This document shows positions 16,867-21,173 of a stretch of DNA of 64,000 nucleotides, one piece after another. Numbering within the stretch: position 1 is the first letter of the stretch; every line of letters starts with the position of its first letter. The stretch comes from Candidatus Woesearchaeota archaeon (GTDB taxonomy: Archaea; Nanobdellota; Nanobdellia; Woesearchaeales; UBA9642). The stretch is taken from contig BPGB01000002.1 in the NCBI GenBank assembly GCA_026002815.1, positions 1-64,000 of the forward strand, read 5' to 3'. The notes below the pieces were generated by a model, which was not told where the DNA came from, searched no databases, and saw only the letters and a list, made by a program, of their open reading frames with translations. Made by a program: the position numbers and the translations under genes.

Positions 16867-18423
16867 ATGCCTAATCCAAACCTTTTTAATACTCGTCATG
16901 ATATTACGAAAAATGAGGCTGGTGGTATTGCTTTTAAAATGTCACCAGAGCATGCGTTAGCCCAATACGCTGTAACAGGGACGTTATATAATACATATTA
17001 TGTTGATGATAAAAACCAACTTGAACATTTACTTGAACTCTTAAAAAAAGTTTCACCAGAATTTGTAGCAAAAACAGCGATTTATGCTCGGCAAGAAGGG
17101 TATATGAAAGATGTACCCGCAGCATTATGTGCCTGGTTAGCAGCTAATGATATTTCTCTTCTAAAGAAAGTGTTTTTCAGGGTTATTGATAACCCCGTTA
17201 TGTTACGAAAATTCGTACAATTTGTACGATCGGGAGTTTTTGGAAGAAAATCTTTTGGTTATGCTCCCAAGAAATTAATCAATCAATATCTTACGAATTC
17301 AAGTTTTGAAGTATTATTTAAAGGAAGTATTGGAAAAAATCCGTCATTAGCTGATGTCATTAAAATGACTCACCCAAAACCAAAAGATAAAACACAAGAA
17401 GTATTTTTTAGATATATTTGTGGATATGATGATATAAATCTTGATGATTTACCGCAAGTAGTTCAAGAATATGAAGTTTTTAAGAAAAATTTACCAACAG
17501 ATATTCCAAAAAATGTTGATTTTAGATTTTTAACAGCATTACCTCTGACGAAAGATCATTGGAAGAAAATTGCATTAACTGCTCCCTGGCATATGACCAG
17601 AATGAATTTAAACACATTTAAGCGATATGGGGTTTTAGATGACCCCGAAATTGTTTCAGTAATTGCCGAAAGACTTCAAAATGAAGAATTAATTAGAAAA
17701 AATAAAGTATTTCCATATCAATTATTTATTACATATATGTCAATTCCTAGAGGTGAGATGCCAAAGGAGATTATTGAAGCGCTAAAGAGAGCCGTGTTAA
17801 TTTCGATGAATAATGTTCCTGATTTTGATCCAGATTTACAAATTGCTATTTGTCCAGATGTTTCTGGGTCAATGAATTCTCCAATCGCAGCTAATAGGCA
17901 AGGAATCGCACGATATATTGATGTTGCTTCAATTTTCACAGCGGCAATTAAAGCAAAAACTAATAATTATATAATTCTTCCATTTAATCATGATTTGATG
18001 GAATTATCTGATATTGAAGAAGATGATGTATTTACATTAGCCTCAAAAATTAGAAAAATGTGTAATGGAGGAACAAATTGTTCCCTTCCTATGGATTTTC
18101 TAGTATCTAAATATTATACTGGAAAACCAGATATTATCATTTATATTTCAGATAATGAATCATGGATTGATACTGATAACATATATAGAGAAAATACTGA
18201 AACTAATAAATTATGGAAACAATATAAACAGAAACGTAATCCAAATGCAAAATTGATTTGTTGGGATATTGCCCCATATAAAACTGTTCAGGTTAAAGAT
18301 GAACCGGATGTTTTAAATATTGGAGGATTTTCAGATCGGATTATGGATATAATTTATTTGTTTATCAATAACAAATTAGAGGGGAAATATTGGAAAGAAG
18401 TTATTGACAGCATTGATCTATAG
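16867..18423 (+). CDS. TROVE-domain Ro60-like RNA-binding protein with vWA domain
   Basis: TROVE-like N-terminus NEAGGIAFKMSPEHALAQYAVTGTLYNTYYVDDKNQLEHLLELLKKVSPEFVAKTAIYARQEGYMKDVPAALCAWLA; C-terminal vWA MIDAS CPDVSGSMNSP. Confidence 0.93.
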   Translation: MPNPNLFNTRHDITKNEAGGIAFKMSPEHALAQYAVTGTLYNTYYVDDKNQLEHLLELLKKVSPEFVAKTAIYARQEGYMKDVPAALCAWLAANDISLLKKVFFRVIDNPVMLRKFVQFVRSGVFGRKSFGYAPKKLINQYLTNSSFEVLFKGSIGKNPSLADVIKMTHPKPKDKTQEVFFRYICGYDDINLDDLPQVVQEYEVFKKNLPTDIPKNVDFRFLTALPLTKDHWKKIALTAPWHMTRMNLNTFKRYGVLDDPEIVSVIAERLQNEELIRKNKVFPYQLFITYMSIPRGEMPKEIIEALKRAVLISMNNVPDFDPDLQIAICPDVSGSMNSPIAANRQGIARYIDVASIFTAAIKAKTNNYIILPFNHDLMELSDIEEDDVFTLASKIRKMCNGGTNCSLPMDFLVSKYYTGKPDIIIYISDNESWIDTDNIYRENTETNKLWKQYKQKRNPNAKLICWDIAPYKTVQVKDEPDVLNIGGFSDRIMDIIYLFINNKLEGKYWKEVIDSIDL

Positions 18424-18509
18424 AAAAAAGGTGTACCCAAATGCCGAAGGGATTACATCTAAACGAGGATTAGAAGATCTCTTCAGTTTTTGTTGGGTGC
18501 ACCTTTTTC
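18424..18509 (+). ncRNA. Y-RNA-like stem-loop, array unit 1
   Basis: Closing stem AAAAAGGTGTACCCA/TGGGTGCACCTTTTT; second stem GAAGGGA(18446-52)/TCTCTTC(18478-84); boxes AATGCCGAAGGGATTACAT and TCTCTTCAGTTTTTGT. Confidence 0.7.
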
Positions 18510-18519
18510 TTCTTTTAAA

Positions 18520-18640
18520 ATAATTGTAGCTGAATGCCGAAGGGATTACATTATACAAATTAAACCAGATAAATATTTAGCCTTTTTTAAAGGCTAAATA
18601 AAAAATCTCTTCAATTTTTGTCAGCTACAATTATCTTTTT
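18520..18640 (+). ncRNA. Y-RNA-like stem-loop, array unit 2 (with internal hairpin)
   Basis: Closing stem TAATTGTAGCTGA/TCAGCTACAATTA; GAAGGGA/TCTCTTC second stem; inner hairpin TATTTAGCCTTT/AAAGGCTAAATA; boxes GAATGCCGAAGGGATTACAT and TCTCTTCAATTTTTGTC. Confidence 0.72.
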
Positions 18641-18670
18641 GCCTGAATGCTGAATGGACTACATTTGTGG
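18636..18670 (+). ncRNA. Y-RNA-like array unit 3, 5' half (interrupted by IS607-type element)
   Basis: TTGCCTGAATGCTGAATGGACTACATTTGTGG; its pairing partner lies 2.2 kb away at 20856-20891. Confidence 0.65.
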
Positions 18671-18753
18671 GCGATCATCAGCTAACTCTTTTATAGAAAA
18701 ATATGCTCATGCATGCCACATTATTTAACAACTATACACCACGAGGTGGCCGC

Positions 18754-19335
18754 ATGAAGCTGAGTGAGTGGGCGAAGCAACAAGGGATTTCGTATCGTAC
18801 GGCATGGAATTGGTTTCGCCAGGGGAAACTTCCAGTTAGTGCGATTCAGACACCCTCTGGAACCATCTTGGTGCAAGATTCATCGAAATCCACATCAGGT
18901 AAAGTCGTTGTGTACGCGAGAGTTTCGTCCGCAGATCAGAAAAGCAGTCTAGATCAACAAGTTGCCCGGTGTGTAGCACACGCAACGTCTCTTGGTTTGG
19001 CAGTTGACAAGGTGGTCACAGAAGTGGGATCCGGCGTAAATGGACGCCGGAAGAAACTCATGCGAGTGTTACGCGATCCGAGTGTCACCACCATTGTGGT
19101 GGAGCATCGAGATCGGCTCACTCGATTTGGTTTTGACCTCCTTGAGGCAAGTTTGGCGTCTCGCAAATGTAACCTCATCGTGGTCGATCCAGTAGAATTG
19201 GAAAATGATCTTGTCAGAGACATGATCGATGTGCTAACTTCTTTCTGTGCCAGGTTGTATGGTCAGCGTGCTGCAAAACGCAAAGCCAGGAAGGCTCTAG
19301 AGGTCATGCAATGCGAACATACCACGGACGGTTGA
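18754..19335 (+). CDS. tnpA: IS607-type TnpA serine recombinase
   Basis: HTH MKLSEWAKQQGISYRTAWNWFRQGKLP; VVVYARVSSADQKSSLDQQVARC catalytic region. In-frame ATG 18754. Confidence 0.93.
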   Translation: MKLSEWAKQQGISYRTAWNWFRQGKLPVSAIQTPSGTILVQDSSKSTSGKVVVYARVSSADQKSSLDQQVARCVAHATSLGLAVDKVVTEVGSGVNGRRKKLMRVLRDPSVTTIVVEHRDRLTRFGFDLLEASLASRKCNLIVVDPVELENDLVRDMIDVLTSFCARLYGQRAAKRKARKALEVMQCEHTTDG

Positions 19336-20855: not shown

Positions 20856-20892
20856 AACGAAATGACAGTCTATTCAAATCTTGTCAGGCAAT
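20856..20892 (+). ncRNA. Y-RNA-like array unit 3, 3' half
   Basis: AACGAAATGACAGTCTATTCAAATCTTGTCAGGCAA; TCAGGCAA pairs TTGCCTGA (18639-46), GTCTATTC pairs GAATGGAC, AAATG pairs CATTT. Confidence 0.65.
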
Positions 20893-20899
20893 TATTTAA

Positions 20900-20975
20900 T
20901 TTGTCCGAATGCTGAAAGGACTACATTATTGTATGTTGACTACAATTTAATGTCTTTTCAATTTTGTCGGACTTC
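20900..20975 (+). ncRNA. Y-RNA-like stem-loop, array unit 4
   Basis: GTCCGA/TCGGAC closing stem; GAAAGGAC/GTCTTTTC second stem; ACATTA/TAATGT and ATTGTA/TACAAT apical pairings; conserved boxes. Confidence 0.7.
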
Positions 20976-20980
20976 ATCTG

Positions 20981-21062
20981 ATTAATAAGATTGAATGCTG
21001 AAGGGACTACATTATAATTGAAATATAATTAACGTCTCTTCAATTTTGTCAATCTTATTAAT
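20981..21062 (+). ncRNA. Y-RNA-like stem-loop, array unit 5
   Basis: 13-bp closing stem TTAATAAGATTGA/TCAATCTTATTAA; GAAGGGAC/GTCTCTTC second stem; conserved boxes. Confidence 0.72.
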
Positions 21063-21074
21063 TTTCCTCTACGT

Positions 21075-21173
21075 ATGAAAAAAGGTCTGAATGCGATGAG
21101 GAATACATTGGCAGATCCGGGCTTCGGCCTCGGATAATGTTCTTCATCAAATAATTGTCAGACCTTTTTTCAT
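21075..21173 (+). ncRNA. Y-RNA-like stem-loop, array unit 6 (divergent, extra UUCG hairpin)
   Basis: Perfect 16-bp closing stem ATGAAAAAAGGTCTGA/TCAGACCTTTTTTCAT; GATGAGGAA/TTCTTCATC; ACATT/AATGT; apical ATCCGGGCTTCGGCCTCGGAT hairpin. Confidence 0.7.

What the first reader, a model, noticed from the sequence alone, without database searches (positions are those of the whole stretch)
16867..21173. Phage Ro60 (TROVE) gene followed by a tandem array of six Y-RNA-like structured RNAs
Directly downstream of the TROVE gene stop (18423) are six units with one architecture: a unit-specific closing stem, an asymmetric internal loop with conserved boxes, a short second stem, and a variable apical module. 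5' boxes: U1 AATGCCGAAGGGATTACAT, U2 GAATGCCGAAGGGATTACAT, U3 GAATGCTGAATGGACTACAT, U4 GAATGCTGAAAGGACTACAT, U5 GAATGCTGAAGGGACTACAT, U6 GAATGCGATGAGGAATACAT. 3' boxes: TCTCTTCAGTTTTTGT, TCTCTTCAATTTTTGTC, GTCTATTCAAATCTTGTC, GTCTTTTCAATTTTGTC, GTCTCTTCAATTTTGTC, TTCTTCATCAAATAATTGTC. The fourth pair of the second stem covaries: G-C (U1, U2, U5), T-A (U3), A-T (U4). Closing stems differ completely in sequence yet stay complementary (13 bp in U5, perfect 16 bp in U6). Established knowledge: Ro60/Rsr binds Y RNAs, bacterial Y RNAs are usually encoded near rsr, and Y RNAs share the closing stem / internal loop / second stem / variable module layout. Inference: a phage-encoded Ro60 with a multi-member set of small RNAs is a candidate new RNP system. 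I do not see the exact metazoan or bacterial Y-RNA consensus, so the RNA family may be new.
Basis: partly seen in the sequence, partly recalled or inferred. Interest (0 to 1): 0.95.

Follow-up and report, generated by a model that had tools for sequence, protein, structure and literature searches.

The report
Phage Ro60 with six Y RNAs
A large bacteriophage carries a gene for the RNA-quality-control protein Ro60, followed by six small RNAs that prove to be bacterial-type Y RNAs; unusually, none of the six has the tRNA look-alike part found next to most bacterial Ro60 genes, and one has been split by a jumping gene.

Summary
The Y RNA reading is right, but "new RNA family" is wrong. The internal-loop signature (GAAUGC ... 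ACUACAU ... UUGUC) is the Ro-binding module of the bacterial Y RNAs YrlA/YrlB (Rfam RF02553, RF02565). A covariance model built without window sequences finds U1, U2, U4, U5 and U6 at 44-60 bits. It finds nothing else in the 1.7-Mb bin or in 147 other genomes, and about 360 further units beside about 130 viral and bacterial TROVE genes, all on the TROVE strand; 15 of 17 pairs covary. What is unusual: all six units are short, YrlB-like RNAs with varied hairpin tips, and the 211-kb phage contig has no detectable YrlA. In my sample a T-arm-bearing (tRNA-like) unit lies beside 71/80 bacterial but only 17/51 viral TROVE genes. Best explanation: a phage Ro60 RNP whose Y RNAs share one docking stem and differ in their effector tips, gating or tethering Ro60 for RNA surveillance or decay during infection. 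Expression and binding are not shown. New variant of a known kind.

The parts
16867..18423 (+). Ro60/TROVE protein gene, 518 aa (TROVE HEAT-like ring plus vWA with MIDAS D331-S333-S335...T403...D429; H169 aligns with Xenopus His187)
18424..18510 (+). Y RNA unit U1 (16-bp closing stem, followed by a U run)
   Evidence: 50.6 bits; z -7.4
18519..18635 (+). Y RNA unit U2 (apical 12-bp hairpin)
   Evidence: 58.7 bits; z -8.0
18637..18664 (+). Y RNA unit U3, 5' half
   Evidence: complementary to 20868-20894
18665..20867 (+). IS607-type insertion inside U3 (exact ends not resolved; outer limits given). tnpA serine recombinase 18703-19335, TnpB-like 19311-20828; GC 52% against 30% for the contig
20868..20894 (+). 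Y RNA unit U3, 3' half (stem-2 arm GTCTATTC, box, closing arm TCAGGC)
20896..20978 (+). Y RNA unit U4
   Evidence: 52.5 bits; z -4.5
20979..21064 (+). Y RNA unit U5 (also a weak Rfam YrlB match)
   Evidence: 59.8 bits; z -7.4
21074..21174 (+). Y RNA unit U6 (16-bp closing stem, UUCG-capped apical hairpin, U run)
   Evidence: 44.4 bits; z -7.6

Best explanation
A phage-encoded Ro60 ribonucleoprotein. The TROVE/vWA ring protein is made together with up to six small Y RNAs encoded right behind it. Each Y RNA docks on Ro60 through the same module: a unit-specific closing stem ending in GA:UC, the asymmetric loop GAAUGC / AAUUUUUG, stem 2, and ACAU. Each presents a different apical hairpin. By analogy with bacterial Rsr, the Y RNAs gate access of damaged or misfolded RNA to the Ro60 ring and tether partners such as host PNPase or other nucleases. 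The phage thereby controls RNA quality or decay in the infected cell. The six are YrlB-type; the tRNA-mimicking YrlA type is not detected. Shown by computation: Ro60 fold, Y RNA module, covariation, linkage to TROVE, absence of a detectable tRNA-like module. Inferred: transcription, binding to this Ro60, gate/tether role, benefit to the phage.
For: Model R1, built only from other loci, finds five window units and nothing else in 1.7 Mb. No hits with E <= 1e-3 in 147 other genomes. 15/17 pairs with double-sided changes, covariation 0.73 against 0.19 shuffled. Arms of the same unit match in 184/342 cases against 5-13 when both arms are swapped (independent of descriptor selection). 38/40 phage records with this TROVE have R1 hits. 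All R1 hits lie on the TROVE strand. Rfam YrlA and YrlB match units of the same family next to rsr. Ro60 fold, Z about 30. H187 equivalent conserved in 41/45; H187S abolishes Y RNA binding in mouse cells (PMC11277228). Rsr/Y RNA/PNPase precedent (PMC8394870, PMC4726728).
Against: No expression or binding data for this phage. No tRNA-like effector module in any unit, so the published RYPER mechanism may not carry over. Some phages keep the units kilobases away from TROVE, and more distant phage TROVEs (Streptomyces, Gordonia, Vibrio, phiLo) and the two parts of Listeria P100 searched show no R1 hit.
Confidence: 0.85

Rival explanations
1. The units are independent structured elements (terminators, processing sites or regulatory leaders) that merely sit next to the TROVE gene.
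For: The closing stems of U1 and U6 are GC-rich at the core and end in U runs, as intrinsic terminators do.
Against: The same module is found beside about 130 TROVE genes on the TROVE strand, not in 147 other genomes, and is the Rfam YrlA/YrlB module. Conserved loop sequences are not needed for a terminator.
Confidence: 0.05
2. The Y RNAs act mainly as decoys or sponges: many copies of the docking stem occupy Ro60, of phage or host, or titrate a host nuclease, and the apical tips do not matter.
For: Six units with divergent tips and conserved docking stems. The YrlA tRNA-like domain has been proposed as a possible competitive inhibitor of an anticodon nuclease (PMC7790460).
Against: The tips are not random loops: U1, U2 and U4-U6 each form an apical hairpin. 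A phage Ro60 is supplied with the RNAs, so titrating it would be self-defeating.
Confidence: 0.2
3. A degenerating array: the phage inherited a bacterial rsr-yrlBA locus, lost YrlA, and the units are decaying, as the IS607 insertion in U3 suggests.
For: IS607 splits U3. No YrlA in the bin.
Against: Five units keep perfect or near-perfect stems and invariant boxes although their stem sequences differ. The TROVE frame and MIDAS are intact. TROVE is long-diverged (end branch 1.46), so the units have been kept under selection.
Confidence: 0.08

Closest known systems
[quoted passage not shown]
   Same: Same docking module and length class; sits directly behind rsr; U5 aligns end to end with YrlB (19.8 bits); L003 shows YrlB next to rsr (105.5 bits) and model R1 finds it (51.4 bits).
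   Different: Six copies instead of one, longer and varied apical hairpins, no YrlA partner, phage-encoded, below Rfam's YrlB threshold (97 bits).
YrlA (Rfam RF02553), tRNA-mimicking bacterial Y RNA
   Same: Same Ro-binding stem: CgaAUGC ... GgaaCUAc ... uucC ... UuGucG.
   Different: Window units have no T-arm/D-arm module; no RF02553 match in the bin.
Phage Ro60/Y RNA candidates: mycobacteriophages (Chen et al. 2014, as cited in PMC12282133), Listeria phage CKA15 (PMC12282133), Thermus phage phiLo Ro60 (PDB 9kop, 9l5y)
   Same: Phage-encoded Ro60; in CKA15 highly transcribed noncoding RNAs lie within 2 kb of the Rsr-like gene and the protein was found in particles.
   Different: Different TROVE subfamilies. 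R1 finds nothing in phiLo or in the two stretches of P100 searched.
Myxococcus phage Mx1
   Same: 41% identical TROVE and two R1 units (40.6 and 36.8 bits): an isolated relative.
   Different: Its units lie among tRNA genes about 11 kb upstream of TROVE, not in an array behind it.

Membership tests
Ro60/TROVE protein | TROVE domain plus vWA domain with MIDAS, Ro60 fold | tested here: met
Ro60/TROVE protein | His needed for Y RNA binding (H187) | tested here: met
   H169 in the sequence alignment with Xenopus Ro60, 41/45 relatives; role of H187 from PMC11277228
Bacterial Y RNA (YrlA/YrlB) | Ro-binding stem with conserved GAAUGC / CUAC / UUGUC elements | tested here: met
Bacterial Y RNA (YrlA/YrlB) | Encoded next to rsr/TROVE | tested here: met
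Bacterial Y RNA (YrlA/YrlB) | Physically bound by Ro60/Rsr | not testable with these tools
   needs gel shift or CLIP
YrlA subclass (RF02553) | tRNA-like domain (permuted T and D arms) | tested here: not met
   No RF02553 match in the bin. The T-loop pattern is absent from U1, U2, U4-U6 and from the left half of U3; its one match, in the right half of U3, lies in the stem-2/loop-3 core (TTCAAATC), not in an apical arm
YrlB subclass (RF02565) | Score above Rfam gathering cut-off (97 bits) | tested here: not met
   U5 19.8 bits; the model is narrow, a clear bacterial homologue (L172) scores 24.9. It works like and aligns with YrlB; formal Rfam membership not met
Metazoan Y RNA (RF00019) | Rfam match / vertebrate Ro-binding sequence | tested here: inconclusive
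   No match in the Rfam scans; PMC4726728 states bacterial Y RNAs are not homologous with the vertebrate clades
IS607 | IS607 serine transposase | tested here: met
   NF033518, 3.6e-59

The most novel reading that the evidence does not exclude
Large phages have evolved their own branch of the Ro60 machine in which the tRNA-mimic Y RNA is dropped and short YrlB-type docking RNAs are multiplied and diversified. Ro60 becomes a phage-controlled hub whose interchangeable RNA tips recruit different partners or block host RNA-cleaving defences.
Probability: 0.25. Interest if true: 0.75.

Novelty: new variant of a known kind. Interest (0 to 1): 0.5.

Why it matters
The role of short Y RNAs (YrlB type) and of Ro60 in phages is open. 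Chen et al. 2014 reported (my recollection of the abstract) that each species has at least one tRNA-like Y RNA; this phage, and many others sampled here, appear not to. A set with one docking stem and varied tips separates docking from effector function by natural variation. The covariance model and about 360 located units give a ready dataset that Rfam's two models largely miss, and Myxococcus phage Mx1 offers an isolated phage in which to test it.

Tried and rejected
1) Rfam at gathering threshold: no hit in the window; at permissive E only microRNA/snoRNA noise over the whole array. 2) Exact-pattern scan of viral contigs: 20 hits, only L025 real by structure and TROVE. 3) Hits in contig C15 of the same bin are palindromic interspersed repeats, not Y RNAs. 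4) Close-relative search with the window TROVE alone found nothing; an alignment query was needed. 5) L003, labelled an Escherichia phage, is best read as an enterobacterial rsr-yrlB-yrlA contig (Rfam YrlB 105 bits) and was moved to the bacterial group. 6) One minus-strand R1 hit in the window (52638-52661, E 0.022) is a plain hairpin lacking the boxes. 7) RNA-repair context: about 30 of the contig's proteins were scanned against Pfam and no RNA ligase or RtcB was found; most of the contig's genes were not scanned. 8) Exact IS607 ends could not be fixed. 9) R1 in parts of Listeria phage P100: no hit (50-85 kb of that genome not searched).

Full report
What is there. The window is the first 64 kb of a 211,225-base contig (C2) in a 1.7-Mb metagenomic bin. 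The contig is 30% GC with 12 tRNA genes at 163-184 kb and phage hallmarks: terminase (window 45895-47541), major head protein, tape measure, DNA polymerase, DnaB helicase and multi-subunit RNA polymerase pieces. Gene 16867-18423 encodes a 518-aa TROVE/vWA protein. Its AlphaFold model (mean pLDDT 88.7) matches Ro60 structures with Z about 30 over about 475 residues, and also the Ro60 of Thermus phage phiLo (9kop, 9l5y). MIDAS residues are invariant in 45 relatives and His169, aligned with Xenopus His187, is conserved in 41 of 45.

The RNAs. Behind the stop codon follow six units. U1, U2, U4, U5 and U6 are intact and fold with z-scores from -4.5 to -8.0. U3 is split: 5' half 18637-18664, 3' half 20868-20894, with an IS607 element between (transposase NF033518 at 3.6e-59, TnpB-like second gene). 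Its arms remain complementary, so the insertion looks recent (inference; GC of the insert 52%).

Homologues. One exact-pattern hit, L025, gave the key: a phage contig with the same element, two further copies whose tips contain permuted tRNA-like arms, and a TROVE gene. Alignment-based searches then gave 79 viral and 80 bacterial TROVE loci. A structural descriptor found 261 units in 124 loci, none on the opposite strand and none in reversed sequence. In a test that does not select for pairing, 184 of 342 5' boxes had both arms complementary downstream, against 5-13 when both arms were swapped between units.

Model and covariation. Model R1 was built from 45 non-window units. 15 of 17 pairs have changes on both sides, covariation 0.730 against 0.186 shuffled and at most 0.167 when slid (the units were selected by a descriptor that requires pairing, so these counts lean towards the structure; one search does not). 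R1 finds U1, U2, U4, U5 and U6 with E from 5e-11 to 1e-15, nothing else in the bin, nothing strong in 23 control sources (best E 0.04; 20 loci without a known TROVE gene, plus L002, L004 and L005, which hold distant or unit-free TROVE regions), and no match at E <= 1e-3 in 147 other genomes of the phylum (strict filters). In TROVE loci it finds 134 hits in 53 loci of the viral run (this includes the window and L003) and 228 in 79 bacterial loci, all on the TROVE strand. 38 of 40 whole phage records have hits.

Identity. Units of this family at L172, L197 and L003 are Rfam YrlA (76.4, 70.3 and 70.9 bits, above threshold) and L003 also carries YrlB (105.5 bits). The YrlA and YrlB consensus lines show the same GAAUGC / CUAC / UUGUC elements, and U5 aligns with YrlB end to end, below threshold. 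The window units are therefore bacterial-type Y RNAs of the short YrlB kind, not a new family. L003 is labelled a phage but carries an enterobacterial-type rsr-yrlB-yrlA arrangement.

What is unusual. By a T-loop pattern (149 of 177 long units match, about 7 expected in shuffles) a T-arm-bearing unit lies beside 71 of 80 bacterial but only 17 of 51 viral TROVE genes (Fisher 5e-11). Related loci are not independent, flanks are limited to 6-8 kb, and some phage units lie kilobases from TROVE, so the p-value overstates the case. Weak YrlA matches exist in 27 of 40 whole phage records, none over Rfam's threshold. The window phage has none in the bin. L080 is another phage with six units behind TROVE and no T-arm, so the window is not alone; arrays of up to seven units occur in bacteria, there usually with tRNA-like members.

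Mechanism. Bacterial Rsr is tethered by Y RNA to PNPase for structured-RNA decay, and the Y RNA gates substrate access (PMC8394870, PMC4726728, PMC7790460). I propose the same docking and gating for the phage RNP, with varied tips as effector modules. A Listeria phage with an Rsr-like protein and very abundant nearby noncoding RNAs (PMC12282133) makes expression plausible. None of transcription, binding or partner choice is shown for this phage.

Phylogeny. In a 45-row tree the window TROVE is a long lone branch (1.46; 47% best identity, to a bacterial row), with phage and bacterial rows largely separate; no close relative was found, so recent transfer from a sampled host is unlikely.

Verdict. 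Observation confirmed with one correction (IS607 in U3). Interpretation partly right: phage Ro60 with Y RNAs yes, new RNA family no. New variant of a known kind.

Noticed in passing
window 18703-20828: IS607 element with a TnpB-like protein that has no Pfam match and only a weak guided_TnpB match; its closest phage relatives are in Thermus phages, and in phiLo a related TnpB-like gene also lies close behind the TROVE gene.
   Followed up: partly
L025:1-6400: Phage contig with 26 tRNA genes in 10 kb and Y RNAs, two of them with permuted tRNA-like tips, interspersed among the tRNAs upstream of TROVE.
   Followed up: partly
L003 (OR845705.1): Record labelled Escherichia phage ECO95 1-6-1 looks like a bacterial rsr-yrlB-yrlA contig: probable contamination.
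   Followed up: yes
G000 bin: The bin is probably mixed: C2 is a phage contig; contig C15 encodes a protein ending in a motif typical of type IX secretion cargo (my recollection) and carries many palindromic interspersed repeats, while genomes of the same genus are 1.2-1.4 Mb. The phage's host is unknown.
   Followed up: no
L209:14991-18155 (C2:198991-202158): Ribonucleotide reductase large subunit with an intein and an HNH endonuclease domain.
   Followed up: no
window 9089-10489: Second vWA-like protein (DUF2201, metallopeptidase-like) with an AAA ATPase just upstream (7658-8875).
   Followed up: no
L041, L048, L079, L116 and others: Y RNAs of 109-114 nt whose tips seem to carry a T-arm with little or no D-arm: possible reduced tRNA mimics.
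   Followed up: no
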